Shown here: positions 2,767 through 22,395 of the stretch, piece after piece
How positions within the stretch are numbered: position 1 is the stretch's first letter
Layout: each line of letters starts with the position of its first letter
DNA from: Nocardioidaceae bacterium
GTDB lineage: Bacteria > Actinomycetota > Actinomycetes > Propionibacteriales > Nocardioidaceae
NCBI GenBank assembly: GCA_030655315.1
Contig: JAURVT010000006.1
Location: forward strand, 1 to 64,000
DNA: 64,000 nucleotides
Direction: 5' to 3'
Made by a program: the position numbers and the translations under genes
The notes under the pieces: model-generated
Database searches by the model: none
Seen by the model: only the letters and a program-made list of their open reading frames with translations
Told to the model about the DNA's origin: nothing

Positions 2767-3407
2767 AGGTCGCCGGAACCGCCGTCCTGAACGCCCCCGT
2801 CGCCCAGGTCTGGGACGCGCTGCTCGACCCGCAGGTACTGGTCCGGACCATTCCGGGCTGCGAGAGCCTGCGCACCACCGCCGAGAACGAGTACGCGATG
2901 ACGGTGACCGCCGGCGTCGCATCCATCAAGGGCACCTACGCCGGCACCTGCTCGCTGAGCGACCTCAAGCCGCACGAGTCGCTGCTGCTCAGGGCCGAGG
3001 GCTCGGGCGGCCCGGGCACGGTCGCGGCCGACGTCACCGTCAGCTTCGGCGACCGCGGCGACGGCACCACCACCGTCGACTACGCCGCGGACGCCGTCGT
3101 CGGCGGCATGATCGGCGGCGTGGGCCAGCGGATGCTGACGTCCGTCAGCCGTCGGATGGCCGGCGAGTTCTTCTCCGCCGTCGACAAGGTCATCCGCGAC
3201 GGCATCCCGGCCGAGGCCCCCGCCCCGGGCGCCGTCGGCGCGGGGACGCCGTCCGCGGCCGCCCCCTCCGAGCCGGGCGTGTTCACCGCGCCGGCCAAGG
3301 CGTCGGCGCTGCCCGCCGGCGACGACTTCGTGAAGGGCGCCGTCGTCGGCGGTACCCTGGTGCTGCTCGGCGTGCTGGCCGGCGGCCTGCTCGGCCGCCG
3401 CCGGTGA
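2763..3407 (+). CDS. CoxG-like SRPBCC protein with C-terminal membrane anchor
   Basis: 214 aa. Residues 1-150 match the CoxG/SRPBCC fold (start MKVAGTAVLNAPVAQVWDAL, then the IPGCESL motif), found next to molybdenum hydroxylase genes and thought to help recruit or mature the enzyme at the membrane. An Ala/Pro-rich linker (about 150-185) leads to a hydrophobic segment (about 190-210) ending in RRR, a tail anchor that would put the domain on the cytoplasmic face. It overlaps the large-subunit gene (ATGA) and the amidase gene (GTGA), so it belongs to the same transcript. Confidence 0.9.
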   Translation: MKVAGTAVLNAPVAQVWDALLDPQVLVRTIPGCESLRTTAENEYAMTVTAGVASIKGTYAGTCSLSDLKPHESLLLRAEGSGGPGTVAADVTVSFGDRGDGTTTVDYAADAVVGGMIGGVGQRMLTSVSRRMAGEFFSAVDKVIRDGIPAEAPAPGAVGAGTPSAAAPSEPGVFTAPAKASALPAGDDFVKGAVVGGTLVLLGVLAGGLLGRRR

Positions 3408-4813: not shown

Positions 4814-4821
4814 GAGACCCG

Positions 4822-4878
4822 CGAGATACGGGTTCTGCACCACGGCGGACGCTCCTGTGGTGCAGAAGCCGTATCTCG
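4822..4878. repeat. 57-bp palindromic element, copy 1 (22-bp arms, 13-nt loop)
   Basis: Left arm 4822-4843 and right arm 4857-4878 pair at 21 of 22 positions around a 13-nt loop. The arms read CGAGATACGG...CTGCACCAC. An almost identical element with the same loop length lies at 56862-56918. It begins 8 nt after the amidase stop and could terminate transcription, but the absence of a T-tract and the second copy fit a dispersed REP-like element better. Confidence 0.85.
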
Positions 4879-5006
4879 GCGACTCAGGGCGGGCGGTCCG
4901 GGGGTTGACAGGCGGGGAGGCGTCGGCAACTCCTGACAGCGGCGTGCCCGATCCGACGACGATCTTCGCCATACGTCCTGCCACGCGATCGGGGTTGGAT
5001 CGGGGC

Positions 5007-9091: not shown

Positions 9092-9894
9092 GGACGCGGG
9101 TCGCGGTCGTCGGCGCGTCCGGGAAGACCGGACGCGCTGCTGCCGACGCCCTGCTCGCGCGGGGCGCGCACGTCGTCCCGACGGGCCGGGCGGAGTGGGC
9201 CGACCTCGCCGGGGCGCTGGCCGGCTGCACGGCCGTCTACGTGGTCGCGCCCAACCTGCACCCCGACGAGCCGTCGTTCGTCGCGTCGGTGCTGGACGCG
9301 GCGCGCGCGGCGGGGGTCGGGCGCGTGGTGCACCACTCGGTCGCGTCGCCGTACGTCCCCGACATGCCGCACCACGTGGGCAAGGCCGTGGCCGAGGACC
9401 TCGTCCGTCGCAGCGGTCTGAGCTGGACGCTGCTGCAGCCGTGCGCCTACGTGCAGAACATGGTGCCGGCGCTGCGCATGCCCGAGCCGGTGCTCGACGT
9501 CGCCTACGACCCGGCCGCACGGTTCGGCCTGGTCGACCTCGCCGACGTGGGCGCCGCGGCCGCGACCGTGCTGCTCGAGGACGGCCACCACGGTGCGACG
9601 TACGAGCTGGGCGGTCCGTCGCTCGTCACCGTCGACGACGTGGCCGCGACGGCGTCGACGGTGCTCGGCGTCCCCGTGCCCGTCCGGCGCACCACGCCGG
9701 CGGCCTGGCGGGCCGGCGCCGACGGCCTGGACCCGCGCGAGGCCGACTGGCTCGCCGCGATGTTCGCCTACTACGACGACCACGGCCTGCCGACGGGCCC
9801 GCGTCCGCTCGCGTCGCTCCTCGGTCGAGACGCCGCCCCCCTCCTCGACACCCTCGCCCGCGAGCTCACCCAGGAGTCGTCAGCACCCCGATGA
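9088..9894 (+). CDS. NmrA-like NAD(P)-binding Rossmann protein
   Basis: 268 aa. The N-terminus has the dinucleotide loop VVGASGKTGRAAADALLARG of atypical short-chain dehydrogenases (NmrA/azoreductase-like group), followed by HHSVASPYVPDM and a PCAYVQNM stretch, all usual for this family. No Tyr-x3-Lys pair is evident, as in many NmrA-like proteins, so it may be a redox sensor or a reductase. GTG start overlaps the hyuB stop, tying it to the catabolic operon. Confidence 0.85.
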   Translation: MRTRVAVVGASGKTGRAAADALLARGAHVVPTGRAEWADLAGALAGCTAVYVVAPNLHPDEPSFVASVLDAARAAGVGRVVHHSVASPYVPDMPHHVGKAVAEDLVRRSGLSWTLLQPCAYVQNMVPALRMPEPVLDVAYDPAARFGLVDLADVGAAAATVLLEDGHHGATYELGGPSLVTVDDVAATASTVLGVPVPVRRTTPAAWRAGADGLDPREADWLAAMFAYYDDHGLPTGPRPLASLLGRDAAPLLDTLARELTQESSAPR

Positions 9895-9924
9895 GTTCGG
9901 GGGGCGGAGACGGTCGGTCGGGGC

Positions 9925-11070
9925 ATGGGTGATCTCGAGAGACTGCTGCAGCGACACGTCGACGCCGGTGCGGTGCCCGGTGCGGTGGCGCTCGTCGGGC
10001 GGGGCGACGACGTCGAGCACGCCGTCGTGGGCGTCGCCGACCTCGCGACGGGCGCCCCGATGGCACGCGACTCGATCGTCCGGGCCGCGTCCGTCGGCAA
10101 GCTCGTCACCGCGACGGCCGTGATGCTGCTCGTCGAGGACGGCGCCCTCCGGCTCGACGACCCGGTCGCCCGCTGGCTGCCCGAGCTGGCCGAGCCGGTC
10201 GTGGTGCGCACCCCGTCGTCGCCGGTGGACGACGTGGTGCCGGCCGTCCGTCCGATCACCGTGCGGCACCTGATGACGTCCAGCGTCGGCTGGGGCTTCC
10301 CGTCGGACTTCTCCTGGCCGGCCGTCGCGCCACTGATGCACGTGGTGCAGCGCGACGGGCGCGACCCCCAGCTCCGTCCGCCGCCGGACGAGTGGCTGGC
10401 CCTGCTGGCCCGCATCCCGCTGCTGCACCAGCCCGGCGACGGCTGGCTCTACAACACCAGCTCGGACCTGCAGGGCGTGCTGCTGGCGCGCGTCAGCGGG
10501 ACGCCGCTGCCCGACCTGCTGCAGGAGCGCGTGCTCGGGCCGCTCGGGATGGTCGACACCGGGTTCGTCGTGCCGGCCGCCGACCTCGATCGGTTCACCG
10601 CCTACTACCGCCCCACCGCCGACGGCCTCGAGCTCGCCGACCCGCCGGACGGGCAGTGGAGCTCGATGCCCGCCTTCCCGGCGGGGTCCGGCGGACTGGT
10701 CTCCACGCTGGACGACCTGCACGCGCTCGCCCGGATGCTGGTGGGCGGCGGCGAGGCGGACGGACGACGCCTGCTGACGGAGGCGTCGGTCCGCCAGATG
10801 GCCACCGACCACCTGGACGACGCCCAGCGCCGGATGGGCTCGCTGTTCCTGGACGGACAGGGCTGGGGGTACGGCGGGTCGGTGGACGGCGCGGCCGACG
10901 ACCCCTGGACGGTGCCGGGACGCTACGGCTGGGTGGGCGGCACCGGCACGTCGCTGCACGTCGTGCCGTCCACCGGCGACGTCTCGATCCTGCTCACCCA
11001 GGTGGGGCTCGACGGCCCCGTCCCGGCCCCGCTGATGCCCGAGTTCTGGACGTACGCGGCGCGGGCCTGA
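9925..11070 (+). CDS. Serine hydrolase, beta-lactamase/EstB family
   Basis: 381-aa class C beta-lactamase-like esterase or amidase. The nucleophile motif SVGK places Ser56 and Lys59. WLYNTSSDLQG near 175 corresponds to the Tyr motif region, and GGTGTSLHV near the C-terminus to the KTG-like motif. No signal peptide, so it is probably cytoplasmic and not an antibiotic-resistance enzyme. It starts 30 nt after the NmrA-like gene and is likely in the same transcript; it could hydrolyse an ester or lactam intermediate. Confidence 0.85.
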   Translation: MGDLERLLQRHVDAGAVPGAVALVGRGDDVEHAVVGVADLATGAPMARDSIVRAASVGKLVTATAVMLLVEDGALRLDDPVARWLPELAEPVVVRTPSSPVDDVVPAVRPITVRHLMTSSVGWGFPSDFSWPAVAPLMHVVQRDGRDPQLRPPPDEWLALLARIPLLHQPGDGWLYNTSSDLQGVLLARVSGTPLPDLLQERVLGPLGMVDTGFVVPAADLDRFTAYYRPTADGLELADPPDGQWSSMPAFPAGSGGLVSTLDDLHALARMLVGGGEADGRRLLTEASVRQMATDHLDDAQRRMGSLFLDGQGWGYGGSVDGAADDPWTVPGRYGWVGGTGTSLHVVPSTGDVSILLTQVGLDGPVPAPLMPEFWTYAARA

Positions 11071-11163
11071 TCCCCCTCCGTCCAGCTGTCGGTGAGCAGA
11101 TGTTGACGACGGATCGACGGTTCGACGTCAGGTGTTGCCCGTGCCCGGGAACACGTGCGCCCG

Positions 11164-11175
11164 TAGGTTCGGGGC
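11164..11175 (+). promoter_or_regulatory. Leaderless-type -10 box before carbamate kinase
   Basis: TAGGTT at 11164-11169 is followed by exactly 6 nt and the ATG, so transcription would begin at or near the start codon. No Shine-Dalgarno sequence is present. This suggests that carbamate kinase and the barbiturase-like gene have their own promoter. Confidence 0.6.
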
Positions 11176-12114
11176 ATGCGCCTCGTGATCGCCCTCGGTG
11201 GCAACGCCATGACGGCGGCCGACGGGTCGGCCACCCCCGAGGACCAGCGCGCCGCCGTGCAGAGCGCGATGGGGGCGGTCGCCGACCTCGTCGTCGCCGG
11301 CCACGAGGTGGTCCTGACGCACGGCAACGGCCCGCAGGTGGGCAACCTCCTGCTCAAGAACGAGCTCGCCGCCGACACCGTCGCGCCCGTCCCGCTCGAC
11401 TGGTGCGGCGCGCAGACGCAGGCCACCATCGGCATGCTCGTGCTCGACACCCTCGACGTCGCCCTCGACGAGCGCGGGTCCGACCGCCGCGCCGCGGTGC
11501 TCGTCAGCCGCACCCTCGTCGACGCTGACGACCCCGCCTTCCAGACGCCCACCAAGCCGATCGGCCGCTACCTGCCCGAGGCCGAGGCGGCGCTGATGAT
11601 CGAGCACGGCCAGCACTGGGTCGAGGTCGGCTCCCGGGGCTGGCGACGCGTCGTCGGGTCCCCCGAGCCGGTCCGCATGCTCGACCTCGCGGCCGCCCAG
11701 GCACTCCTGGCCGACGGCTTCGTCGTCGTGTGCGCCGGGGGCGGCGGCATCCCCACGCTGCACGACCCCGCCACCGGGTACACCGGCGTCGAGGCCGTGA
11801 TCGACAAGGACGTCGCGTCCGCGCTGCTCGCCGAGCAGGTGCAGGCCGACGCGCTCGTCATCGCCACCGACGTCGACGCCGCCGTCGTCGGCTGGGGCAC
11901 CCCGGACGCCCGGGCGCTCGGCGAGGTCGACGCCGCCGAGATGCGCCGCATCGCCGCCGAGGGCCACTTCGCCGCCGGGTCCATGGGCCCCAAGGTCGAG
12001 GCCGTCACCCGCTTCGCCGAGCGGTGCGGCCGCGTCGGCGTCATCACCTCCCTGCCCCGCATCGCCGACGCCGTCGCCGGCACCGCCGGCACGCGCGTCG
12101 TCCCGAAGTCCTGA
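11176..12114 (+). CDS. arcC: Carbamate kinase
   Basis: 312-aa amino-acid-kinase-fold enzyme interconverting carbamoyl phosphate + ADP and ATP + carbamate. Seen: N-terminal ALGGNAM nucleotide/phosphate loop, [11 protein letters not shown], the CAGGGGIP loop near 190, VIDKD, and GSMGPKVEA near the C-terminus, all diagnostic of carbamate kinases. It is 26 nt ahead of the ring-opening amidohydrolase, implying that a carbamoylated product is turned into ATP. No carbamoyltransferase gene is visible in the window. Confidence 0.93.
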
Positions 12115-12139
12115 ACACCACCCCGAACGAGAGGTCGTC

Positions 12140-13243
12140 ATGCCCGCCGCCATCGAAGTCCGCAAGGTCCCGATCCACTCCGTCGCCGACGCCAGCGAGC
12201 TCGCGAAGCTCATCGACGACGGCGTCATGGAGGCCGACCGCGTCGTCGCCGTCATCGGCAAGACCGAGGGCAACGGCGGCGTCAACGACTACACCCGGAT
12301 CATCGCCGACCGCGCGTTCCGCGAGGTCATCCAGGCCAAGGGCACCCGCTCGGTCGAGGACGTCAAGCAGATCCCGATCGTCTGGTCCGGCGGTACCGAC
12401 GGCGTCATCAGCCCCCACGCCACGATCTTCGCCACCGTCGCCGACGAGAAGGCGACGAAGACCGACGAGCCGCGCCTGACGGTCGGCTTCGCGATGAGCG
12501 AGCAGCTGCTGCCCGAGGAGATCGGCCGCACGCCGATGATCACCAAGGTCGCCGACGCCGTGAAGGTCGCCATGGAGCGCGCCGGCATCACCGACCCCGC
12601 CGACGTGCACTACGTGCAGACCAAGACGCCGCTGCTCACGATCCACACCATCCGCGACGCCAAGAGCCGCGGCCAGAAGGTCTGGACCGAGCACACCCAC
12701 GAGTCGATGGACCTCTCCAACGGCGTCACCGCGCTCGGCATCGCCGTCGCCCTGGGCGAGATCGAGATGCCCACCGACGCGGACGTCATGCACGACCGCA
12801 GCCTGTTCTCGGCCGTCGCCTCCTGCTCCTCGGGCGTCGAGCTCGACCAGGCCCAGGTCGTCGTGGTCGGCAACGCCCGCGGCGTCGGCGGCGACTACCG
12901 CATCGGCCACGCCGTGATGAAGGACGCCCTCGACGCCGACGGCATCTGGGACGCCATCCGCGACGCGGGCCTCGACCTCCCCGAGCGCCCCCGCACGTCC
13001 GACCTCGAGGACCGCCTCGTCAACGTCTTCCTCAAGTGCGAGGCCAGCCAGGACGGCGAGGTGCGCGGTCGTCGCAACGCGATGCTCGACGACTCCGACG
13101 TCCACTGGCACCGCCAGATCAAGGCCGCCGTCGGTGGCGTCACCGCCGCCGTCACGGGCGACCCCGCCGTCTTCGTCTCCGTCTCCGCCGCCCACCAGGG
13201 TCCCGAGGGTGGAGGCCCCGTCGCCGCCATCATCAAGGCCTGA
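12140..13243 (+). CDS. Ring-opening amidohydrolase, barbiturase/cyanuric acid amidohydrolase family
   Basis: 367 aa, the family length. The three-fold Toblerone design is visible as three Lys/Ser pairs: Lys41 with Ser83 (VWSGGTDG), Lys162 with Ser230-Ser231 (SCSSGVE), and Lys299 with Ser349 ([15 protein letters not shown]). These enzymes open cyanuric acid or barbiturate rings. I cannot tell the two apart by eye; the molybdenum hydroxylase and amidase upstream favour a barbiturase-like role in oxidative pyrimidine breakdown. ATG 12140 follows a GAGAGG ribosome site. The stop is followed by a large nested stem-loop. Confidence 0.92.
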
Positions 13244-13248
13244 GAGCT

Positions 13249-13331
13249 GGGGCATCCCGGCTGGGTGCGTGGCCCGGTGCTCGGCGAACCCGGTTCGCCG
13301 TCGCACCGGCGCCTTCCCAGCCGGGCGCCCC
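13249..13331 (+). terminator. Large nested stem-loop after the barbiturase-like gene
   Basis: Three nested helices: outer arms 13249-13265 and 13316-13331 (GGGGC..CCCGGCTGGG against CCCAGCCGGGCGCCCC), middle arms 13274-13280/13303-13309 and inner arms 13282-13289/13293-13300. It is placed where the operon should end. There is no T-tract, so it may act as a Rho-independent-like stop or 3' stabiliser. Confidence 0.65.
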
Positions 13332-13472
13332 ACCCCTCAGGACCTCCGTGACCACGCTGAGAACCTCCCGGGACGTCAAGAACACCGTGCAGACGGTCCG
13401 AGCACCCCGCCTCGACGCCGGGACGCCCGACCGGTCAGTGACATCGCCTCGATCCTCGGCGAGGATCGGCCC

Positions 13473-13679
13473 ATGACCGACGCACCGAAGCCCCAGGGCC
13501 CCGCCTCCTACTTCCCGTCCATCGAGAAGACCTACGGGCAGCCGATCGAGCACTGGCTCCAGCTGGTGCGCGACAGCCCGCTGAGCAAGCACGGCGAGCT
13601 CGTCACCTGGCTCAAGACCGAGCACGGGATGGGGCACGGCCACGCCAGCGCCGTCGTCGCGCACGCCCTGAAGGGATGA
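13473..13679 (+). CDS. Small DUF4287-type protein
   Basis: 68 aa. The sequence SYFPSIEKTYGQPIEHW followed by LVTWLKTEHGMGHGHA is the DUF4287 pattern, a small domain of unknown function common in actinobacteria and sometimes fused to DUF5655. Single domain, cytoplasmic, no known partner. A short inverted repeat (13451-13467) lies just before the ATG. Confidence 0.85.
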   Translation: MTDAPKPQGPASYFPSIEKTYGQPIEHWLQLVRDSPLSKHGELVTWLKTEHGMGHGHASAVVAHALKG

Positions 13680-13770
13680 CGGCCGCCCGTCCCCGATGAG
13701 TTCGTCGTCCGCCGCCGGTCTGTCCTGTGAGCGGCCGACGAGGGCCGCGCTCGAGCAAGGAGACACCGAG

Positions 13771-14325
13771 ATGCGCGCAGTGACCGCTGGGCTGTTCCAC
13801 TCCGTCGACGGCGTGGTCGAGGCCCCGAACCTCTGGCAGCTCGACGCCTTCGACGAGGTCATGGGCCAGGAGATGGGCGCCTTCATCTCCCGCGCCGACA
13901 CCGTCGTCATGGGCCGGGTCGGGTACGAGCAGTGGTCGGACTACTGGCCCACCGCCGCCGAGCAGGACGGGTTCGGCACCTTCATCAACGCCGTCCCCAA
14001 GCTCGTCGCGTCGCGCACCCTGAGCGGAGAGCTGACCTGGCAGAACGCGAGCCTGGTCGAGGGCGACCTGTTCGACGCGGTCCGCGCGCTCAAGGAGACC
14101 GAGGGCGGCGACATCGCGGTCTGCGGCGGCATCACGATCGTCCGCGAGCTGCTGTTCGCCGGCCTGCTCGACCGCCTCACCCTGATGACCCACCCCGTCG
14201 TCGCCGGGTCGGGGCGCCACCTCTTCGAGCCGGGCGACCCGGTCACCCGGCTCACCCTCGACCGGTCGATCACCACGCCCAAGGGCAACGTCGTGACCGA
14301 CTACTCGGTGCGGCGCGACGGCTGA
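13771..14325 (+). CDS. Dihydrofolate-reductase-fold family protein (RibD C-terminal type)
   Basis: 184 aa with the RibD-C/DHFR-like pattern: AGLFHSVDGVVEAP at the start, VVMGRVGYEQWSDYW near 50, GGDIAVCGGITIVRELL near 110-125, and a closing PVVAGSGRHLF. Such proteins bind NADPH; many are orphan reductases outside riboflavin synthesis. The ATG was chosen for the AAGGAG site 9 nt upstream. It converges with the minus-strand sugar operon, whose last gene ends 7 nt away. Confidence 0.9.
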   Translation: MRAVTAGLFHSVDGVVEAPNLWQLDAFDEVMGQEMGAFISRADTVVMGRVGYEQWSDYWPTAAEQDGFGTFINAVPKLVASRTLSGELTWQNASLVEGDLFDAVRALKETEGGDIAVCGGITIVRELLFAGLLDRLTLMTHPVVAGSGRHLFEPGDPVTRLTLDRSITTPKGNVVTDYSVRRDG

Positions 14326-14332
14326 GCCGGGC

Positions 14333-15370
14333 TCAGCGCCGCAGCACGTCGGGGTTGGCCACGTGCTCGGGGACGGCGCCCCGGGCGTACCGGGCGACGT
14401 CCGCCCCCAGGATCTGGGCCGCACGCAGCGCGGTCTGCTTGCTCGCCCCGGCCAGGTGCGGGGTGAGCACGAGACCGGGGGTCGTCAGCAGGCGCGAGCC
14501 GGCGGGGATCGGCTCGACCGGGAACACGTCGAGGGCGGCGCCGAACAGGTGGCCGCGGTCCAGGGCGTCGCAGAGTGCGTCGGCGTCGAGGAGCGTGCCC
14601 CGGGCGCAGTTGACGAGCACCGATCCCGGCCGCATCGCCGCGATCTGCTCGGCGCCGATCATCCCGGCCGTCTCGGCGGTGGCGCGGGCGTGCAGCGTGA
14701 CGACGTCGGACGACGCGAGGAGCTCGTCCAGATCCACCGGCTCGGCCAGGCCGGCCAGCTGGTCGGCGTCCACGAACGGGTCGTGGACGAGCACCCGGGC
14801 ACCGAACCCCTGGAGCATCCGGGCCACGCGGCGTCCGATCGCCCCGAAGCCCACCAGGCCCACGGTGCTCGAGCCGAGCTCGGGTCCGACGCTGTCGTAG
14901 GCGTAGTAGTCGCCCCGCCAGGTGCCGGCGTGCAGGTCGGCGTCCGTCGCGGGGATGCGCCTGGCCGCGGCCAGGATCAGGCCCAGGGTGTGCTCGGCCG
15001 TCGCAGGCGCGTTGCGTCCCGGTGCGTACGTGACCGTGACCCCGTGCGCGGTGGCCGCGTCGAGGTTGGCGTTGACGGGGCCGCCGCGGCTCACCCCGAA
15101 CATCCGCAGGTCGGGGCACGCCTCGAGGACCCGCTCGGTGAGGGGCGCCATCTGCGTGAGGCACACCTCGACGCCCTGCAGTGCCTCGACCAGCTGCTCC
15201 TCGGTGCCCGACGCCTCGTCCACCTCGCCCACGGGGCCGAAGGGCTCGATCGGCCACGGCAGCGTCAGCTCACGCACCTCCACCGGCCGCTCGACGACGC
15301 CGCGCACCGAGTCGGCGAGCAGGGTGCTGAGGACGAAGTGGTCGCCGGCGGCGAGGACGGACAGGCTCAT
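14333..15370 (-). CDS. D-2-hydroxyacid dehydrogenase family protein
   Basis: 345-aa NAD-dependent dehydrogenase of the phosphoglycerate-dehydrogenase/glyoxylate-reductase class. Seen: NAD loop GLVGFGAIGRRVA, catalytic Arg region VNCARGTLLD, the Glu region DVFPVEPIP and the catalytic His in LTPHLAGASKQT. It closes the sugar operon and overlaps the phosphatase gene by ATGA, so it probably handles a sugar-acid or phosphorylated sugar-acid intermediate rather than serine synthesis. Substrate not determinable. Confidence 0.9.
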   Translation of the reverse strand: MSLSVLAAGDHFVLSTLLADSVRGVVERPVEVRELTLPWPIEPFGPVGEVDEASGTEEQLVEALQGVEVCLTQMAPLTERVLEACPDLRMFGVSRGGPVNANLDAATAHGVTVTYAPGRNAPATAEHTLGLILAAARRIPATDADLHAGTWRGDYYAYDSVGPELGSSTVGLVGFGAIGRRVARMLQGFGARVLVHDPFVDADQLAGLAEPVDLDELLASSDVVTLHARATAETAGMIGAEQIAAMRPGSVLVNCARGTLLDADALCDALDRGHLFGAALDVFPVEPIPAGSRLLTTPGLVLTPHLAGASKQTALRAAQILGADVARYARGAVPEHVANPDVLRR

Positions 15371-15993
15371 GACGATGACACCTTCGGTTCGAGGGGGCGG
15401 TTGAGCTCGAGGAGGGCGGCGGGCCCGTCCCCGACGACGCGCAGCCGGGTCAGCGCGGCGTTGTGCAGCGAGGGGAGCACGCGTCGATAGCTCCCGAGGG
15501 GGATGCCGACGAGCTGACAGACCGCGAGCCGGATCGCGGTGCTGTGCGCCACCACGAGGACGGTGCCGGCGGGCTGGGCCGCCGACGCGGCGTGGAGCGC
15601 GGCGACGAAGCGGTCCGCCACCACGTCGGGGTGCTCCCCACCGGGCAGGGGGTGCTCCACGGGGTCGCGGACGAAGGCCGCGCGGGCCTCGGGGAACGCC
15701 TGCTCCATCTCGGCCGCGGTCAGGCCCTCCCCCGCACCGAAGTGCGCCTCGGTGAGACGGTCGTCGACGCCGACCTCGAGGCCCGTGGTCCGGGCGCAGG
15801 CGGCCGCGGTCAGCCGCGCCCGTGACAGCGGCGAGCTCCAGATCGCGTCGAGCCCGGCCGTCGCGGCCCACCGGCCCAGCGCCTCGGCCTGCTCGAGACC
15901 GACGTCGGTGAGGCCGACGTCGCTCGAGCCGGCGTAGCGGTTCTCGGCGTGCCAGAGGGTCTGGCCGTGGCGCACCAGGACGAGGTCGGTCAT
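15367..15993 (-). CDS. Histidine phosphatase (phosphoglycerate mutase-like)
   Basis: 208 aa. The phosphohistidine motif LVRHGQT is at 6-12 and the second catalytic His lies in VVAHSTAIRLA near 150; the Glu is in the LTEAHFGAGEG stretch. These enzymes remove phosphate from sugar phosphates and similar small molecules. It overlaps the kinase gene upstream and the dehydrogenase gene downstream, an unusual kinase-phosphatase-dehydrogenase arrangement in one operon. Confidence 0.9.
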   Translation of the reverse strand: MTDLVLVRHGQTLWHAENRYAGSSDVGLTDVGLEQAEALGRWAATAGLDAIWSSPLSRARLTAAACARTTGLEVGVDDRLTEAHFGAGEGLTAAEMEQAFPEARAAFVRDPVEHPLPGGEHPDVVADRFVAALHAASAAQPAGTVLVVAHSTAIRLAVCQLVGIPLGSYRRVLPSLHNAALTRLRVVGDGPAALLELNRPLEPKVSSS

Positions 15994-17486
15994 GCGTGTG
16001 CTCCCCTGCGGGCGTGGGCGGCGACGGGCTCGGCGAGCCAGCCGCGTCGCTCGAGCTGGTCGACCAGGGCCACGTAACCCTCCAGGAGGCGGTCGCGGGT
16101 CTGCCGCGGCTCGTAGGTGCGGGACGTGCCCGTCATGGCGGCCGCGACCGGGGCGGGGTCACCCTCGCCCGCGGCGGCCAGCACGGCCATCCCGAGCGCC
16201 GGCGTCGCGTCGTCGGGCACGCGCACCTCGCGACCGAGGACGTCGGCGCGGAGCTGGCACCAGTAGGCGTTGCCGCTCGCCCCGCCGGTGAGGACCACGT
16301 CACCGTGCAGCGGCGCGCCGAGCAGGTCGAGGTAGTCGTAGCAGAGCCGCTCGACGTGGGCCACGCCCTGCAGCACCGACGCGAAGCGGTCGGCGTCGTC
16401 GCCCGACGAGCCCACGGTGAACGCCCGCGCCCCGGGTGCGACGAACGGGAAGCGCTCGCCCTCGGAGACCAGGGGGTAGGTCAGCGCACCGGACGGCTCG
16501 TGCTCCCGGGCCCCCCGCGTGAGCGCGTCGAGGTCGGCCCCGGGGAACATCGAGGGGACGACGCCCGCACCGCTGCTCGAGGCGCCGCCCGGCAGCCATC
16601 GTCCGGCCGGGCCGCGGTGGGAGTACACGACGCCCGCGGGGTCGACGACCGGCCGCTCGGTCACCCCCTTGAGCACGAGGGTGGTGCCGAGCACGCTGTT
16701 CCAGCTGCCGACGTCGACGACGCCCGCGCCCAGCTGGCTCGCGCAGCCGTCGGTGGTGCCGGCGACGACGGGCGTGCCCGCGGGGATGCCGGTGGCGGCC
16801 GCGCCGGCGGCCCCCACCCGGCCGAGGCCGGCGCCGGGGGCCACGAGCGGTGGGAGCACCTCGGCGGGGACGCCGAGCCGGTCCATCACCGTCGTCGGCC
16901 AGCCGTGGTCGACGAGGTGGGCGCCGGTCTTGAGCGCGTTGCTGAGGTCGGTGGCGACGGCGTGGCCGACGAGCCGCCGGTTGACCAGGTCGACCTGGTG
17001 GGACAGGCGGACGTCGCGGGAGCCACCGGCCTCCGCGCGCTCCTGCAGCAACCACAGGAGCTTCGGCAGGCCCCAGGACACCTGCATCCGCTGGTACCCC
17101 AGCGCCGCCCACACGTCGGCACCCGCCACGTCGACGGCGGCGAGGTGGTCGTGGGCGCGTGCGTCGTCGTACATCAGCCCGGGCGTCAGCGGGGTGCCGT
17201 CGACGTCGGTCAGCAGCACCGTCCCCGACGTGCCGTCGGTGGCGACCCCGCGCACGGTGGCCGGGTCCAGGTCGGCGGTCGCGTGGCGTGACGCCTCGCC
17301 GACCGCGCTCCACCACTGCTCGGGGTCCTGCTCGTGACGGGGCCCGTCGCGCCGGCTGGACAGCGCCGACGAGCCGCGCCCCACCACGACGCCGTCGCCG
17401 CGGACGGCCAGCACCCGGACGCTCTGCGTGCCGAGGTCGATGCCGATCCACGTCCCGTCCGGGTCGGTGCTCCCGGGGGCGGTCAT
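15990..17486 (-). CDS. FGGY-family carbohydrate kinase 1
   Basis: 498-aa ATP-dependent sugar/polyol kinase. Seen: N-terminal phosphate loop GIDLGTQSVRVLAV, the adenosine-side TTDGCASQLGAG stretch, and GDVVLTGGASGNAYWCQ near the C-terminus, the FGGY signature region. ATG chosen because it overlaps the stop of kinase 2. It differs from kinase 2 throughout, so this is not a recent duplication. Closest in pattern to xylulokinase-like members; substrate unknown. Confidence 0.9.
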   Translation of the reverse strand: MTAPGSTDPDGTWIGIDLGTQSVRVLAVRGDGVVVGRGSSALSSRRDGPRHEQDPEQWWSAVGEASRHATADLDPATVRGVATDGTSGTVLLTDVDGTPLTPGLMYDDARAHDHLAAVDVAGADVWAALGYQRMQVSWGLPKLLWLLQERAEAGGSRDVRLSHQVDLVNRRLVGHAVATDLSNALKTGAHLVDHGWPTTVMDRLGVPAEVLPPLVAPGAGLGRVGAAGAAATGIPAGTPVVAGTTDGCASQLGAGVVDVGSWNSVLGTTLVLKGVTERPVVDPAGVVYSHRGPAGRWLPGGASSSGAGVVPSMFPGADLDALTRGAREHEPSGALTYPLVSEGERFPFVAPGARAFTVGSSGDDADRFASVLQGVAHVERLCYDYLDLLGAPLHGDVVLTGGASGNAYWCQLRADVLGREVRVPDDATPALGMAVLAAAGEGDPAPVAAAMTGTSRTYEPRQTRDRLLEGYVALVDQLERRGWLAEPVAAHARRGAHA

Positions 17487-18964
17487 GCCGGGACCCGCTC
17501 GGCCGAGCGGCGTGCGGCGAGCAGCCGCCAGGCAGGGGCGGCCTCCTCGCGCAGGCGGACGAAGTCGGCGTACAGGCCGTCGTAGACGTCGTGCGCCCGG
17601 GGATCGGGCTCGAAGCGTCGGCCGAGCACGACCGGCGGGGCCTCGACGCCGCGGACGCGCGCCGCGACCAGGTAGGCGCCGCGGGCCCCCACCTCGGCGT
17701 CCTCGGTCCGGGTGACGGGCACGCCCGTGACGTCGGCGATGACCTGGGTCCACACGTCGTTGACGGCACCGCCGCCGCACACGCGGAGGTCTGACACCGG
17801 GGTGGCGCAGACCTCGAGGCAGTCGCGCACGACGAGCGACAGGCCCTCGACGACGGCCCGCGCGACGTGGGCCGGGCCGTGCGCGAAGGACAGCCCGTGC
17901 AGGACCCCGCGGGCGGCGGCGTCCTGGAAGGGGGCGCGCTCGCCGGCCTGGGACAGGTAGGGCAGCAGCACCAGGCCGTCCGCACCGACGGGGGCCTGAC
18001 GGGCGAGCGCCCCGAGCTCCGACGGGTGGTGCAGGCCGAGCAGGGTGCAGGCCCAGCCGATCACCTCGCCGCCGGCGAGCGTGGGGAACGCACGGACGTG
18101 CCGTCCCGGCAGGCCGGACGCGACCGTGATGCCCGTCGCGACCTCACCCACGGGCAGCTCGTCGACGACGACCTCGGTGCACAGGGTGGTGCCGAGGATG
18201 CAGCAGGCCTGGCCGGCGTCGACGGCGCCCGAGCCCAGGGCCGTGGCCACGATGTCGTAGGGCGCGAGCACCACCGGGACCCCGGACGGGATCCCCAGCC
18301 GGCCGGCGACGTCGTCGAGCACCGGGGCCGCGCGGTCGTCGTCGGCGAGGACGCGCGGGAGCAGACGGCGGGCCCACGACATCGAGAACAGGGCGATCAG
18401 CTTCTCGGAGTACGCGAGCGTGCGCAGGTCGAGGAACGGCGCCGACGCGTCGGAGGTGTCGCTCACGCGCAGACCGGTGAGGCAGGAGAAGATCCAGCCC
18501 CCGCACGTCAGGGAGGTCGCCGAGGCCGCGAGCCGGTCGGGGTCGTGCCTCTCGAGCCAGGCCAGGACGGCGTGCCCGATCCCGGACGACCCCAGGTTCC
18601 CGTTGAGCGCGAACGCCGCGTCGAGCAGCCCCTCGCGCTGCCACCGGGACACGACGTCGGCCGCGCGGCCGTCGTTCCAGAGCACGGCCGGGCCCGTGGG
18701 TCGGCCGGCGTCGTCGACCAGCCAGGCGCCGTCGCCCTGGGCGGTGACCGCGACGGCCTCGAGATCGCCGTCCAGCTGCGGGACGACCTCGGCGACGGCC
18801 GAGGCGACGGCGTCCCACACCGCGTCCATGTCCTGCTCGGACCAGCCGGGCTCGGGGTGCAGCACCTCGGTGGGACGGCGGGCGACCACGGCCTCCCGTC
18901 CGTCGGCCGCGTAGCCGACGACCTTGATCATGGTGGTGCCCGCGTCGATCGTGATCACGCTCAT
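17483..18964 (-). CDS. FGGY-family carbohydrate kinase 2
   Basis: 493 aa. Phosphate loop TIDAGTTMIKVVGY at 4-17, AVTAQGDGAWLVDD near 95, WNDGRAADVV, CCILGTTLCTEV near 265 and VCGGGAVNDVWTQ near 395. The TAQGDG and NDGRA motifs resemble erythritol kinase/L-xylulose kinase-like members, suggesting a polyol or ketose. An upstream in-frame ATG exists, but the one at 18964 begins exactly at the family N-terminus. It starts 34 nt after the permease gene. Confidence 0.9.
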   Translation of the reverse strand: MSVITIDAGTTMIKVVGYAADGREAVVARRPTEVLHPEPGWSEQDMDAVWDAVASAVAEVVPQLDGDLEAVAVTAQGDGAWLVDDAGRPTGPAVLWNDGRAADVVSRWQREGLLDAAFALNGNLGSSGIGHAVLAWLERHDPDRLAASATSLTCGGWIFSCLTGLRVSDTSDASAPFLDLRTLAYSEKLIALFSMSWARRLLPRVLADDDRAAPVLDDVAGRLGIPSGVPVVLAPYDIVATALGSGAVDAGQACCILGTTLCTEVVVDELPVGEVATGITVASGLPGRHVRAFPTLAGGEVIGWACTLLGLHHPSELGALARQAPVGADGLVLLPYLSQAGERAPFQDAAARGVLHGLSFAHGPAHVARAVVEGLSLVVRDCLEVCATPVSDLRVCGGGAVNDVWTQVIADVTGVPVTRTEDAEVGARGAYLVAARVRGVEAPPVVLGRRFEPDPRAHDVYDGLYADFVRLREEAAPAWRLLAARRSAERVPA

Positions 18965-18998
18965 CGTGGCGCTCCGTCCCTGGTCGGTGCCGACATCG

Positions 18999-20258
18999 TC
19001 ACGCACGGCCGGACGAGGCACGGGTGCGGCGTGCCGCGGAGTCCAGCGCGACGGCGAGCATCAGCACCGCGCCCGTGACCATGAAGCGGAACGACGAGTC
19101 CAGGCTCAGCAGCGTCAGACCGCTCGAGATGGACTGGATGACCAGCACGCCCAGCAGCGCGGCGAACGCGGTGCCGCGGCCGCCGAACAGGCTGGTGCCG
19201 CCGATGACCGCCGCCGCGATCGCGTTGAGGTTGACGTCGCCGCCGCCGCTGCTCTGGTTGGCCGCGGCGAGCCGCGCCGCCGCGAGGACGCCCCCGAGCG
19301 CGGCGAAGGAGGTGCAGAGCATGAAGCACGAGGTGTAGACGAGGCGGACGTTGATGCCCGCGCGACGGGCCGCCTCGACGTTGCCGCCCACCGCGTAGAC
19401 CGAGCGGCCCCACTTGGTGCGGGAGAGCAGGTAGTGCATGACGAGCACGAGCCCCACGAACAGCACGAACATCCAGCCGACGCCCCGGGTCTGGTTCAGG
19501 TAGAAGACCACGAAGCCCAGCAGGAGGAGCAGCACCGCGCTGCGCACGCCGAGGTCGGTGAGACCCCGGTGCGACAGGCCGGCCGCCGCCCGCTTGCGTG
19601 AGTGCGCGAGGCCGGTCACCAGGAGCCCGCCGGCGGCGAGGACCACGAGGACGTACGAGAGCCACGGCGGCACGAACCACAGCTGCGCGAACTTCACCAG
19701 GCCCGAGTCGAACGGGAGGTTGATCGAGCCCTGGGCGCCCAGCAGGTACAGCTGCAGGCCGAGGAAGCCCAGCAGGCCGGCGAGGGTGATGACGAAGCTG
19801 GGCACGCCGAACCGGTTGAACATCAGCGAGTAGGCGAAGCCGACCACGGCGCCCGCCAGCACGGCGGCGACGATCGCGACGACGACGGGCAGACCCTTGT
19901 CGACGAACAGGATCGCCACGATCGCCGAGGACAGCCCGCTCACCGAGCCGACCGACAGGTCGATCTGGCCGACGAGCAGCATGAAGACCACGCCGAGCGC
20001 GATGATGCCGACGCTGGCGCACTCGAGCGTGAGGTTCACCAGGTTGGCGCTCGACAGGAAGATCGGGTTGAGGGCCTGGAGCACGCCCCAGATCACGACG
20101 AGTCCGGCGACGACCGGCAGGACGCCGAGGTCGCCGTCCTTGATCCGACGGACCTGGGCGTCGACGGTGCCGCGCAGTCCGGACGACCGGCGCAGGCGCT
20201 CGTCCTGCAGGTCGGTGGCGACGGCCGTCTGCTCGGCCGGCTGGTCGGTGGTGGTCAT
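18999..20258 (-). CDS. Sugar ABC transporter permease (XylH/RbsC type)
   Basis: 419-aa inner-membrane permease with about 10 hydrophobic segments. Seen: VFMLLVGQIDLSVGS (the classic RbsC-family motif near TM3), AVGGNVEAARRAGI, and AIAAAVIGGTSLFGGRGTAFAALLG near the C-terminus. Length suits the D-xylose-type XylH subgroup. It overlaps the ATPase gene by ATGA, so the pair forms the transporter core. Confidence 0.93.
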   Translation of the reverse strand: MTTTDQPAEQTAVATDLQDERLRRSSGLRGTVDAQVRRIKDGDLGVLPVVAGLVVIWGVLQALNPIFLSSANLVNLTLECASVGIIALGVVFMLLVGQIDLSVGSVSGLSSAIVAILFVDKGLPVVVAIVAAVLAGAVVGFAYSLMFNRFGVPSFVITLAGLLGFLGLQLYLLGAQGSINLPFDSGLVKFAQLWFVPPWLSYVLVVLAAGGLLVTGLAHSRKRAAAGLSHRGLTDLGVRSAVLLLLLGFVVFYLNQTRGVGWMFVLFVGLVLVMHYLLSRTKWGRSVYAVGGNVEAARRAGINVRLVYTSCFMLCTSFAALGGVLAAARLAAANQSSGGGDVNLNAIAAAVIGGTSLFGGRGTAFAALLGVLVIQSISSGLTLLSLDSSFRFMVTGAVLMLAVALDSAARRTRASSGRA

Positions 20259-21079
20259 GACGGTGCTCCCTCGTGGGTGGTGGTGGCGCCCTGGCGCCGG
20301 GACGCACGCTGGGAGACCGCGTTGTCCGTGGCGCCGGTGATGGCCGCGATGATCTCCTCGCTGGAGACGTCCTGGACGTCGAAGACGCCGTTGTTGCGCC
20401 CGAGGCGGAGCACCGCGACCTTGTCGGCCACGGCCCGCACGTCCTCCATGTTGTGGCTGATCATGATCACGCCGAGACCGCGCTCGCGGAGCCGCTCCAC
20501 CAGGTTCAGGACCTCGGCGGTCTGGGCCACGCCGAGCGCCGCGGTGGGCTCGTCGAGGATGATCACGCGCGGGTCGCCGATCAGCGACCGCGCGATCGCC
20601 ACCGTCTGGCGCTGGCCACCCGAGAGCGACGCGACGGGGATGCGGACCGTCGGGATCTTCGCCGAGAGCTGCCGCAGCAGCTCCCAGGACCTGACCTCCA
20701 TCGCGACGTCGTCGAGCCGCAGCGCGTTGATCTCGCGGCCGAGGAACAGGTTCTCGATCACGTTGAGGTTCTCGCACAGGGCGAGGTCCTGGAACACCGT
20801 GGCGATGCCGAGGTCGTGCGCGGTGGCCGGGTCGTCGATCGTCACCGTCCGCTGCTCGAAGGTGATCGTGCCCGACGTCGGCGCGTGCACGCCGGCGAGC
20901 ACCTTGACGAGGGTCGACTTGCCGGCGCCGTTGTCGCCGACGACGGCGACGACCTGACCGGGGGCGACGTCGAGGTCGACGTCGGTGAGCGCCGCGACGG
21001 CGCCGAAGGTCTTGGAGATGGAGCGCAGCGACAGCACGCTGGTGTCGGCCGGTGCGCTCGCGGGTGCGGTGGGCGTCAT
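20255..21079 (-). CDS. Sugar ABC transporter ATP-binding protein
   Basis: 274-aa single-domain ATPase. Walker A GDNGAGKST at 48-56, signature LSGGQ at 152-156, Walker B VIILDEP at 172-178, and the switch His in MISHNM. The fused double-cassette RbsA/XylG form is about twice as long; the single-domain form is common in actinobacteria. It powers the adjacent permease. Confidence 0.93.
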   Translation of the reverse strand: MTPTAPASAPADTSVLSLRSISKTFGAVAALTDVDLDVAPGQVVAVVGDNGAGKSTLVKVLAGVHAPTSGTITFEQRTVTIDDPATAHDLGIATVFQDLALCENLNVIENLFLGREINALRLDDVAMEVRSWELLRQLSAKIPTVRIPVASLSGGQRQTVAIARSLIGDPRVIILDEPTAALGVAQTAEVLNLVERLRERGLGVIMISHNMEDVRAVADKVAVLRLGRNNGVFDVQDVSSEEIIAAITGATDNAVSQRASRRQGATTTHEGAPS

Positions 21080-21171
21080 GGGTGCCTCGGGGGTGGGTCG
21101 GGGGGTGAGGTCAGGGGTTGGTCGGGGGCAGGTGGCCGGGTCCCCTGCCGAGGGCGGGGACCCGGCGCACG

Positions 21172-22260
21172 TCAGCTGATGCCCAGCTCGGTGCAGGCCT
21201 TCGCGTACTCGCCGGTGCAGACGTCGGCGGCCTCGAGGGCGCCGGAGTCGAACAGCGCCTCCTTGATGTTGTCCCGGGTGACGACCTCGGGGGTGAACAG
21301 CTGCGAGGGGGTGTCGAACAGCGTCGCCTTGCCCTTCGGCGTCTTGCCCTGGGCGAAGTCGTAGGCGACCACGGCCGCGGCCTCGGCGACGGTCTTGATC
21401 GGCTTGGAGATGGTGTTGTACTGGTCGCCGGCGAGGATCCGCTGCGCGGCGGCGAGCTCGGCGTCGTTGCCCGTGACGGGCGGGACGGTGACCCCGGCCG
21501 CCTTGAAGGCGGCGATGGCCCCGCCGCCGGTGCCGTCGTTGGCGGCGACCACGCCCGCGATCTGGTCGGGGAACTTGGTGATCTGGCCGCTCACCCAGCT
21601 CTGCGCCTTCTCGGGCTGCCAGTCCGGGGTGTCGTACTCGGCGAGCAGGTCGATGCCGCTGGGGTCGATCGCGCTGTGGATGCCCTTCTTGATCAGGCCG
21701 GCGGCGGCGTCCGTCGGCGAGCCGTTGACCTGGAGGATGCCGCCCTCGGCCTTGGTCGCCTTCAGGTCGTCGACGAGCGACTGACCGATGAGCGCGCCGA
21801 TCTTCTCGTTGTCGAACGAGACGTAGTAATCGGCCGGGATCTTGGGGATCGGTCGGTCGTAGGCGATCACCGGGACGTCCTGGCTCTGCGCGGTCTGGAC
21901 GATCGTGGCGGCCGCCGCGGAGTCGACGGGATCGATGACCAGGGCCTTCACGCCCTGCGCCAGCGCCGAGTCGGCCTGCTGCTGCTGCTTCGAGGCGTCG
22001 GAGTCGGCGTTCTGGTAGATGACCTCGCAGCCCGGGCACAGCTCGGCGATCTTCTTCTTGAACAGCGGGCTGTCGTACTGCTCGTAGCGCGTCGAGGCCA
22101 GGTCGGGCATGAGGAACGCGATCTTGGCGTCCTCGGCCCCGCCGCCACCGCCTCCGCCACTGCCGCCGCCGTCCGAGCCGGAGCCGCAGGCACTGAGGGC
22201 GAGGGTCGTGGACAGGGCGGCGGCGACGAGCGCCGCCACACGGGTTCGGGGGTTGGTCAC
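21172..22260 (-). CDS. Sugar ABC transporter substrate-binding lipoprotein (XylF-like)
   Basis: 362 aa. N-terminal signal with lipobox LSACGS, then a Gly-rich linker, then a type-1 periplasmic-binding fold: IAFLMPDLAS, DYYVSFDNEKIG, ANDGTGGGAIAA and TGNDAELAAAQR, a pattern seen in D-xylose-binding proteins. Exported and anchored outside the membrane. The GTG at 22260 was chosen because AAGGAG lies 8 nt before it and the signal peptide begins there; a longer upstream frame is implausible. First gene of the operon; 92 nt separate it from the ATPase gene. Confidence 0.92.
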   Translation of the reverse strand: MTNPRTRVAALVAAALSTTLALSACGSGSDGGGSGGGGGGGAEDAKIAFLMPDLASTRYEQYDSPLFKKKIAELCPGCEVIYQNADSDASKQQQQADSALAQGVKALVIDPVDSAAAATIVQTAQSQDVPVIAYDRPIPKIPADYYVSFDNEKIGALIGQSLVDDLKATKAEGGILQVNGSPTDAAAGLIKKGIHSAIDPSGIDLLAEYDTPDWQPEKAQSWVSGQITKFPDQIAGVVAANDGTGGGAIAAFKAAGVTVPPVTGNDAELAAAQRILAGDQYNTISKPIKTVAEAAAVVAYDFAQGKTPKGKATLFDTPSQLFTPEVVTRDNIKEALFDSGALEAADVCTGEYAKACTELGIS

Positions 22261-22363: not shown

Positions 22364-22392
22364 ACACTAGGTCGCTGCTGCACATATGTCCA
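22364..22392 (-). promoter_or_regulatory. Candidate promoter of the sugar operon
   Basis: On the minus strand TGGACA (22392-22387) is separated by 17 nt from TAGTGT (22369-22364), a good sigma-A-type promoter. It would give a leader of roughly 95 nt before the binding-protein gene. Confidence 0.55.
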
Positions 22393-22395
22393 GCA
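22376..22395. promoter_or_regulatory. 20-bp palindromic operator between sugar operon and SorC regulator
   Basis: The sequence TGCTG-C-ACATATGT-C-CAGCA is symmetric except at one base pair. It covers the -35 box of the sugar-operon promoter and lies 75 nt before the regulator gene, the place expected for a SorC-family operator. Confidence 0.6.

What the first reader, a model, noticed from the sequence alone, without database searches (positions are those of the whole stretch)
14333..22260. Sugar operon with two FGGY kinases, a sugar-phosphatase-like enzyme and a hydroxyacid dehydrogenase
Import plus two dissimilar kinases, a histidine phosphatase and a dehydrogenase in one overlapping operon is an unusual set; kinases and phosphatase could form a controlled phospho-shuttle or act on two related polyols. 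SorC regulator resembles LsrR type.
Basis: inference. Interest (0 to 1): 0.5.

Follow-up and report, generated by a model that had tools for sequence, protein, structure and literature searches.

The report
Probable pentitol operon that relocates phosphate
This bacterial gene set probably imports a five-carbon sugar alcohol such as ribitol and burns it by adding a phosphate at one end, oxidising next to it, and then moving the phosphate to the other end; it recurs in many actinobacteria and, in a few Streptomyces, is joined to the CO2-fixing enzyme RuBisCO.

Summary
In detail: 14333-22260 (minus strand) carries SBP, ABC ATPase, permease, two dissimilar FGGY kinases (K1, K2), a histidine phosphatase (PH) and a D-2-hydroxyacid dehydrogenase (DH), beside a divergent SorC regulator. 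It is no oddity: 71 of 80 actinobacterial K2 loci hold all four enzyme genes. K1, DH and K2 are distant relatives of proteins that, by gene order, are EryA, RbtA and RbtB of the Sinorhizobium erythritol/adonitol/L-arabitol locus. There the K2 relative is followed by an unrelated (HAD) phosphatase-type protein. In 22 of 80 loci an RbtT/DalT-like transporter is present. I infer a pentitol route: K1 phosphorylates, DH oxidises to ketose-1-phosphate, PH removes that phosphate, K2 adds one at C5; ribitol to D-ribulose-5-phosphate is my best guess. Four Streptomyces carry form II RuBisCO directly behind DH and showed no clear phosphoribulokinase, so the operon may make ribulose-1,5-bisphosphate there. 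No step has been assayed. An AI-2 (Lsr) role is not supported. New variant of a known kind.

The parts
21172..22260 (-). substrate-binding protein (362 aa, XylF/ChvE-like, PF13407)
   Evidence: closest PDB chain D-xylose-binding protein 3m9w; XylF model 179.2 bits, below cut-off 389.55
20255..21079 (-). ABC transporter ATPase, single nucleotide-binding domain (274 aa)
18999..20258 (-). sugar ABC permease (419 aa, PF02653)
   Evidence: GguB model 206.7 bits, below cut-off 450
17483..18964 (-). K1: FGGY kinase of the EryA clade, inferred pentitol kinase
   Evidence: 30% to the EryA place of L086; 28-row clade with EryA, support 100/99; D7 and D237 near-invariant
15990..17486 (-). K2: FGGY kinase of the RbtB clade, inferred D-ribulose (pentulose) 5-kinase
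   Evidence: best PDB match SePSK 5htn; 35% to the RbtB place of L086; 26-row clade, 100/99; D17, T20, D246 align with SePSK D8, T11, D221 (numbering offset worked out by hand)
15367..15993 (-). PH: histidine phosphatase (branch 1), inferred ketose-1-phosphate phosphatase
   Evidence: R8 H9 G10 R58 E82 H150 near-invariant in 86 rows; directly behind K2 in 77 of 80 loci
14333..15370 (-). DH: D-2-hydroxyacid dehydrogenase family, RbtA-like, inferred pentitol-phosphate dehydrogenase
   Evidence: 44% to the RbtA place of L086; R257 E286 H305 near-invariant in 85 rows; R95, N100 and R119 shared with all 5 RbtA-type rows compared and absent from 2 other dehydrogenases of the same genome
22470..23456 (+). 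SorC-family transcriptional regulator (328 aa, PF04198)
   Evidence: 28% to the SorC-family regulator of L086
22376..22395 (.). candidate SorC operator, imperfect palindrome TGCTGCACATATGTCCAGCA
   Evidence: found once in the window at 4 mismatches or fewer; a similar site (5 mismatches or fewer) lies upstream of the SBP gene in 22 of 25 SorC-type loci, in 0 of 17 loci with the SBP but no SorC gene seen, and in 1 of 300 random stretches

Best explanation
A pentitol catabolic operon that works by phosphate relocation. The ABC transporter imports a pentitol, most likely ribitol (adonitol), second D-arabitol. K1 phosphorylates it at one end. DH, despite its 2-hydroxyacid family, oxidises the carbinol next to the phosphorylated carbon and gives a pentulose-1-phosphate. 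PH removes that phosphate. K2 phosphorylates the free pentulose at C5. The product, D-ribulose-5-phosphate (or D-xylulose-5-phosphate), enters the pentose phosphate pathway, so no aldolase or isomerase is needed in the operon. SorC controls it through the site at 22376-22395. Shown: gene set, families, conservation, kinship of K1, DH and K2 to the proteins in the EryA, RbtA and RbtB places, linkage to a pentitol-type transporter and to RuBisCO in relatives, operator-like site. Inferred: every reaction, its order, the substrate and the regulation.
For: (1) K1 falls in a clade with EryA and K2 in a clade with RbtB, both at 100/99 support and apart from the genome's own GlpK, AraB and XylB rows (the AraB and XylB rows are long branches, whose place the program calls unsure); a separate XylB passes its cut-off (421.7 against 380.25). 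(2) DH is 44% identical to RbtA over 335 residues and shares R95, N100 and R119. (3) In S. [quoted passage not shown] (4) The K2 relative RbtB is followed by a homologue of a HAD hydrolase (TIGR01459 in L085) in 9 of 9 alphaproteobacterial loci whose sequence reaches beyond it, one with a broken frame; the window's genome has no TIGR01459 protein over cut-off, and PH stands in that place. (5) DH homologues stand with PH/K2 or with a FucA-type class II aldolase (8 of 9 alphaproteobacterial loci fetched), two ways to use a ketose-1-phosphate; in L082 and L105 no EryB was found near, which leaves the DH homologue as the candidate dehydrogenase. (6) An MFS homologue in 22 of 80 loci; the one tested is RbtT/DalT/CsbX, 500.6 bits against 375. 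(7) K2 keeps the residues mutated in SePSK, which has D-ribulose kinase activity (PMC4880283 passages). (8) Form II RuBisCO behind DH in 4 Streptomyces points to a D-ribulose skeleton.
Against: No enzyme assay or growth test. The dehydrogenase family is known for 2-hydroxyacids, not polyol phosphates. I could not see which of EryB and RbtA oxidises the pentitol phosphate in S. meliloti (Geddes and Oresnik 2012 not held), and EryB is absent here. fucA is not needed for the three polyols in S. meliloti (PMC3599248), which weakens point 5. RbtB plus HAD also stands beside L-rhamnose genes with no EryA/RbtA seen (L085, L101), so that pair is not confined to pentitols. K1-DH and K2-PH can be split (L070, L074, L076, L084), K2-PH occurs without K1/DH on what is held of L068 and L078, and K1-DH without K2-PH in the stretch fetched for L093. 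Identities to EryA, RbtA and RbtB (30, 44, 35%) are below the cut-offs that the authors used within Proteobacteria (46, 50, 51%). The DH tree does not resolve DH plus RbtA as one clade, and L077 and L079 DH fall outside the main DH group. The SBP looks most like xylose-binding protein. The window's genome has neither the MFS nor RuBisCO.
Confidence: 0.6

Rival explanations
1. Same pathway, other order: K2 phosphorylates the ketose-1-phosphate first to the 1,5-bisphosphate (for ribulose this is RuBP), and PH then removes the 1-phosphate.
For: Form II RuBisCO directly behind DH in 4 Streptomyces (3 of 392 in a genus sample, two of them already known, plus L030), with catalytic motifs present and no clear phosphoribulokinase found: something must make RuBP.
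Against: RuBisCO is present in only 3 of 80 loci; SePSK acts on free D-ribulose (PMC4880283 passages); a kinase acting on an already phosphorylated ketose is unusual in the FGGY family (recalled).
Confidence: 0.2
2. Two independent pairs: K1-DH handles one polyol, K2-PH is a separate salvage or repair pair for stray ketose phosphates.
For: The pairs are separable: opposite strands or apart in L070, L074, L076, L084; K2-PH without K1/DH on what is held of L068 and L078, K2 alone in 3 of 80; K1-DH without K2-PH in L093; RbtB-HAD stands with rhamnose genes.
Against: All four are together in 71 of 80 loci, with 4-base overlaps K1/K2, K2/PH and PH/DH in the window; of 7 DH loci drawn without regard to K2, 5 hold K2-PH in the same stretch.
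Confidence: 0.12
3. A sugar-acid pathway: K1 phosphorylates an aldonate and DH oxidises its 2-hydroxyl as its family name says.
For: DH belongs to the D-2-hydroxyacid dehydrogenase family with its R-E-H triad; PdxB of this superfamily oxidises a phosphorylated sugar acid (recalled).
Against: Pentitol-type MFS homologue in 22 of 80 loci; kinship of K1, DH and K2 to polyol genes; no decarboxylase or aldolase in the operon to use a phospho-ketoacid.
Confidence: 0.08
4. Autoinducer-2 uptake and processing (Lsr-like).
For: SorC regulator, ABC transporter and FGGY kinase as in lsr operons.
Against: LsrK and LsrR models far below cut-off; none of the seven operon genes belongs to a family of LsrF or LsrG by its Pfam matches.
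Confidence: 0.01

Closest known systems
Sinorhizobium meliloti erythritol/adonitol/L-arabitol locus (eryD, mptABCDE, eryA, rbtA, eryB, lalA, rbtBC; PMC3599248, passages)
   Same: Homologous polyol kinase (30%), RbtA-type dehydrogenase (44%), second FGGY kinase (35%), SorC-family regulator (28%), a phosphatase-type hydrolase behind the second kinase.
   Different: No EryB, EryC, LalA, TpiB or RpiB in the operon; histidine phosphatase instead of HAD hydrolase; XylF-type ABC transporter instead of MptABCDE.
SePSK / AtXK-1 (PDB 5htn, 5htr), FGGY kinases; [quoted passage not shown]
   Same: Closest solved relatives of K2 by sequence; the residues mutated in SePSK are conserved.
   Different: They come from a cyanobacterium and a plant; I did not test whether they sit with a phosphatase.
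Klebsiella-type ribitol/D-arabitol operons (RbtT, DalT; recalled)
   Same: Related transporter in 22 of 80 loci.
   Different: As recalled, those oxidise the free pentitol first and then use one kinase; here a kinase is thought to act first, and two kinases and a phosphatase are used.
XylFGH D-xylose ABC transporter
   Same: Closest family for the binding protein and the ATPase.
   Different: Below the curated cut-offs; ATPase has one domain; no xylose isomerase in the operon.
Lsr AI-2 system
   Same: SorC regulator, ABC importer, FGGY kinase at family level.
   Different: All below cut-off; no LsrF or LsrG in the operon.

Membership tests
S. meliloti-type adonitol/L-arabitol (ery/rbt) locus | polyol kinase in one clade with EryA | tested here: met
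   K1 in a 28-row clade with EryA, 100/99; the clade also holds Rhodobacterales kinases and one other kinase of this genome
S. meliloti-type adonitol/L-arabitol (ery/rbt) locus | second kinase in one clade with RbtB | tested here: met
   K2 in a 26-row clade with RbtB, 100/99
S. meliloti-type adonitol/L-arabitol (ery/rbt) locus | dehydrogenase in one clade with RbtA | tested here: inconclusive
   44% identity, R95, N100 and R119 shared; clade not resolved
S. meliloti-type adonitol/L-arabitol (ery/rbt) locus | identity over the authors' cut-offs (EryA 46%, RbtA 50%, RbtB 51%) | tested here: not met
   30, 44 and 35% to L086
S. meliloti-type adonitol/L-arabitol (ery/rbt) locus | RbtC (HAD hydrolase) | tested here: not met
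   PH is PF00300; no TIGR01459 over cut-off in the genome. So it may work like this locus but is not filed as a member of it.
S. meliloti-type adonitol/L-arabitol (ery/rbt) locus | growth on adonitol/L-arabitol | not testable with these tools
   needs cells
Xylulokinase XylB | curated XylB score (TIGR01312, 380.25 bits) | tested here: not met
   K1 242.8, K2 172; another kinase of the genome reaches 421.7
Active histidine phosphatase (branch 1) | RHG, second Arg, Glu and second His | tested here: met
   R8 H9 G10 R58 E82 H150 near-invariant in 86 rows
Lsr / AI-2 system | LsrK and LsrR curated scores | tested here: not met
   80.5 and 94.8 against 528; 90.9 against 486
RbtT/DalT/CsbX MFS family (relatives' loci) | TIGR00897 score | tested here: met
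   500.6 against 375 for the one protein tested, L061; homologues in 22 of 80 loci; none in the window's genome at 1e-20

The most novel reading that the evidence does not exclude
The operon makes ribulose-1,5-bisphosphate without phosphoribulokinase: pentitol kinase and dehydrogenase give D-ribulose-1-phosphate, K2 adds the 5-phosphate, and PH normally takes off the 1-phosphate; in a few Streptomyces a form II RuBisCO has been recruited behind DH to split RuBP with CO2 into two 3-phosphoglycerates, a RuBisCO-linked route of sugar-alcohol catabolism outside the Calvin cycle.
Probability: 0.22. Interest if true: 0.8.

Novelty: new variant of a known kind. Interest (0 to 1): 0.5.

Why it matters
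If right, a gene set annotated only generically in many actinobacteria gets a substrate and a pathway, a branch of the 2-hydroxyacid dehydrogenase family gets a new kind of substrate (polyol phosphates), and phosphate relocation appears as a solution met with two unrelated phosphatases. The RuBisCO-bearing version would be a testable case of RuBisCO working in heterotrophic pentitol use without phosphoribulokinase.

Tried and rejected
AI-2/Lsr reading: rejected on model scores. Xylose/xylulose reading: K1 and K2 fail the XylB cut-off, and another kinase of the genome passes it. A first guess from memory that the S. meliloti relative was the SMb20484 region was wrong: PMC4961836 (one passage seen) links that one to psicose. 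Literature searches gave nothing on this gene set in their listings; two searches gave PMC3599248 and PMC4880283 (passages seen of both). In one search my simple gene caller picked some antisense frames (clusters such as c11, c14, c16, c21); counts were taken from tblastn instead. The first DH tree script failed on an empty row and was repeated; it did not resolve the base. A working note said 7 of 7 sampled DH loci have K1; on rereading it is 6 of 7, and the report uses that. An AlphaFold job for DH (single sequence) was not finished at any collecting call (90, 92, 96, 98, 100), so no structure was used.
Full report
What is there. Neither kinase reaches the cut-off of any NCBIfam kinase model listed; the SBP is XylF/ChvE-like and below the cut-offs. 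K1 and K2 are 29% identical. The usual catalytic residues of all four enzymes are near-invariant (97% or more of the filled rows) in alignments of 83 to 90 rows; naming them as catalytic is from general knowledge of the families, except SePSK D8, T11 and D221, which were the mutated residues in PMC4880283.

It is a conserved set. With K2 as query, the best 80 loci were kept from 282 confirmed relatives in the species-genome collection. 71 of 80 hold K1, K2, PH and DH, 65 in the window's order and strand, and 77 have PH directly behind K2. Of the 71, 25 have the SorC and SBP genes, 14 a DeoR-type regulator and the SBP, 16 DeoR and an MFS transporter, 3 DeoR and both transporters, 3 DeoR, MFS and RuBisCO, 6 DeoR alone and 4 none of these; the other 9 loci are smaller sets, including 3 with K2 alone. 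Some loci are cut by contig ends, and many of the 80 are related species. Without selecting on K2, 7 of 396 actinobacterial genomes (own apart) had a close DH homologue; a K1-like kinase is in 6 of the 7 stretches fetched and K2-PH in 5. One of the 7 contigs begins with DH and another ends with it; L093 has K1-DH but no K2-PH in its stretch. K1-clade membership was tested in the tree for 4 of the 7 (L088, L091, L092, L093); L088 and L091 hold further FGGY kinases outside that clade.

Two modules. K1-DH and K2-PH lie apart or on opposite strands in L070, L074, L076 and L084, and K2-PH is found without K1/DH in what is held of L068 and L078.

Relatives with a known role. In alphaproteobacterial plasmids the DH homologue stands with an FGGY kinase in 9 of 9 regions that I fetched (9 of the 32 alphaproteobacterial records among the 40 listed). 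In 8 of 9 a FucA-type class II aldolase is present; the ninth is S. fredii NGR234 (L104). The genes of L086 and L104 follow the order in which PMC3599248 lists its proteins (EryA, RbtA, EryB, LalA, RbtB, RbtC, EryC), and that paper says that NGR234 lacks fucA, as L104 does. That DH is RbtA and the K2 relative RbtB is therefore an inference from order, not from accessions. [quoted passage not shown] The words dehydrogenase, phosphatase and ribulose do not occur in its main text, so it assigns no such reactions to RbtA, RbtB or RbtC in those words.

The phosphatase is replaced. RbtB is followed by a homologue of a HAD hydrolase in 9 of 9 regions whose sequence reaches beyond RbtB (L085, L086, L099-L104, L108; in L086 its frame is broken; L081 ends inside RbtB). 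Seven of these nine are 7 of the 20 alphaproteobacterial K2 hits; L086 and L104 came through DH. The one scanned, L085, scores 279.8 bits against 103.75 for TIGR01459; three more are so annotated (L099, L100, L101), the others are tblastn matches. The window's genome has no TIGR01459 protein over cut-off (best 59 bits). So the K2/RbtB kinase is paired with a HAD hydrolase in one phylum and with a histidine phosphatase in another, which argues that kinase and phosphatase work together. A caution: in L085 and L101 the RbtB-HAD pair stands beside L-rhamnose genes with no EryA/RbtA seen.

Trees. K2 and RbtB form one clade (26 rows, 100/99); K1, EryA, the Rhodobacterales kinases and one further kinase of the same genome form another (28 rows, 100/99), apart from the genome's GlpK, AraB and XylB rows. 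The AraB, XylB and rhamnulokinase-like rows are long branches and their place is unsure. DH and RbtA share R95, N100 and R119, which two other dehydrogenases of the genome lack. The DH tree is unresolved at its base: RbtA-type rows group (9 rows, 98), most DH rows group (16 rows, 84), L077 and L079 DH fall outside (quick method). The extra arginines could hold a phosphate, but this is inference.

Pentitol. 22 of 80 loci carry a homologue of an MFS protein that scores 500.6 bits against 375 in the RbtT/DalT/CsbX model. RbtT and DalT are ribitol and D-arabitol transporters (recalled). K2 is nearest in the PDB to SePSK, reported to have D-ribulose kinase activity. Together with RuBisCO this favours a D-ribulose skeleton, so ribitol first and D-arabitol second. 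The window's genome itself has neither this MFS nor RuBisCO.

RuBisCO. L030, L035 and L061 (3 of 80) have a form II RuBisCO about 50-80 bases behind DH on the same strand (871.7 bits against 489 for L061). In 392 genomes of the genus of L061, 3 have it: those of L035 and L061 and a new one, G680, again directly behind DH (87 bases) in a full operon. The active-site motifs searched for are present in all four. The search for PF00485 in these four genomes found only weak matches (35.6 to 47.1 bits). Three of them I read by eye as pantothenate kinase and one as uridine-kinase-like; the G680 match (44 bits) was not fetched. I had no score for a true phosphoribulokinase to compare. No genome of the 396 in the phylum sample matched this RuBisCO at 1e-100, and the window's genome did not match; the same query did match. 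I found no paper on this in the listings; the library lacks most subscription journals.

Control. The site TGCTGCACATATGTCCAGCA lies at 22376-22395 between the regulator and the SBP gene. Upstream of the SBP gene, a site with 5 mismatches or fewer is found in 22 of 25 SorC-type loci, 0 of 17 loci with the SBP but no SorC gene seen, and 1 of 300 random stretches; upstream of the sorC gene itself in 9 of the 24 loci where that could be looked at. The pattern was taken from the window, which is not among the 25; the 25 are largely related species, so they are not independent.

Mechanism. The chain K1, DH, PH, K2 explains all four genes, the lack of aldolase and isomerase in the operon, and the kinase-phosphatase pairing; FucA behind DH in relatives would be another way to use a ketose-1-phosphate, though fucA is dispensable in S. 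meliloti. The erythritol pathway of Brucella (kinase, then oxidation next to the phosphate) is the recalled model for the first two steps. Whether PH acts before or after K2 is open; the RuBisCO loci favour a bisphosphate at least there. All reactions are inferred.

Verdict. Real, conserved and probably a pentitol operon; a new variant of a known kind rather than a new kind. The RuBisCO link is the most interesting part.

Noticed in passing
L030:12242-13615, L035:12245-13618, L061:12398-13777, L125:5130-6503: Form II RuBisCO directly behind the operon in four Streptomyces genomes in which no clear phosphoribulokinase was found.
   Followed up: partly
L118 (own genome, contig C24), about 2500-15500: Another sugar-type locus, read mostly by eye: CUT2-like ABC transporter, an FGGY kinase (9963-11459) directly followed by a HAD-IIA-type protein (about 9247-9942), a SorC-like regulator, GlpD- and GlpK-like genes, a class II aldolase and pyruvate/acetoin-dehydrogenase-like genes: a second kinase-phosphatase pair in the same genome.
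   Followed up: no
L119 (own genome, contig C13), 1398-6870: A kinase of the EryA clade (2986-4533) with, read by eye, a phosphotriesterase-like protein, a HAD phosphatase (1398-2069), an alcohol dehydrogenase and a branched-chain-type ABC transporter.
   Followed up: no
L083, L087, L106, L107: In Rhodobacterales an RbtA-like dehydrogenase, FucA-type aldolase and FGGY kinase stand with CoA-transferases, an acetolactate-synthase-like enzyme and a molybdopterin oxidoreductase; substrate unknown.
   Followed up: no
L090, L091: Actinobacterial loci that hold K2-PH, DH, two FGGY kinases and a FucA-type aldolase together, as if both ways of using a ketose-1-phosphate were kept.
   Followed up: no
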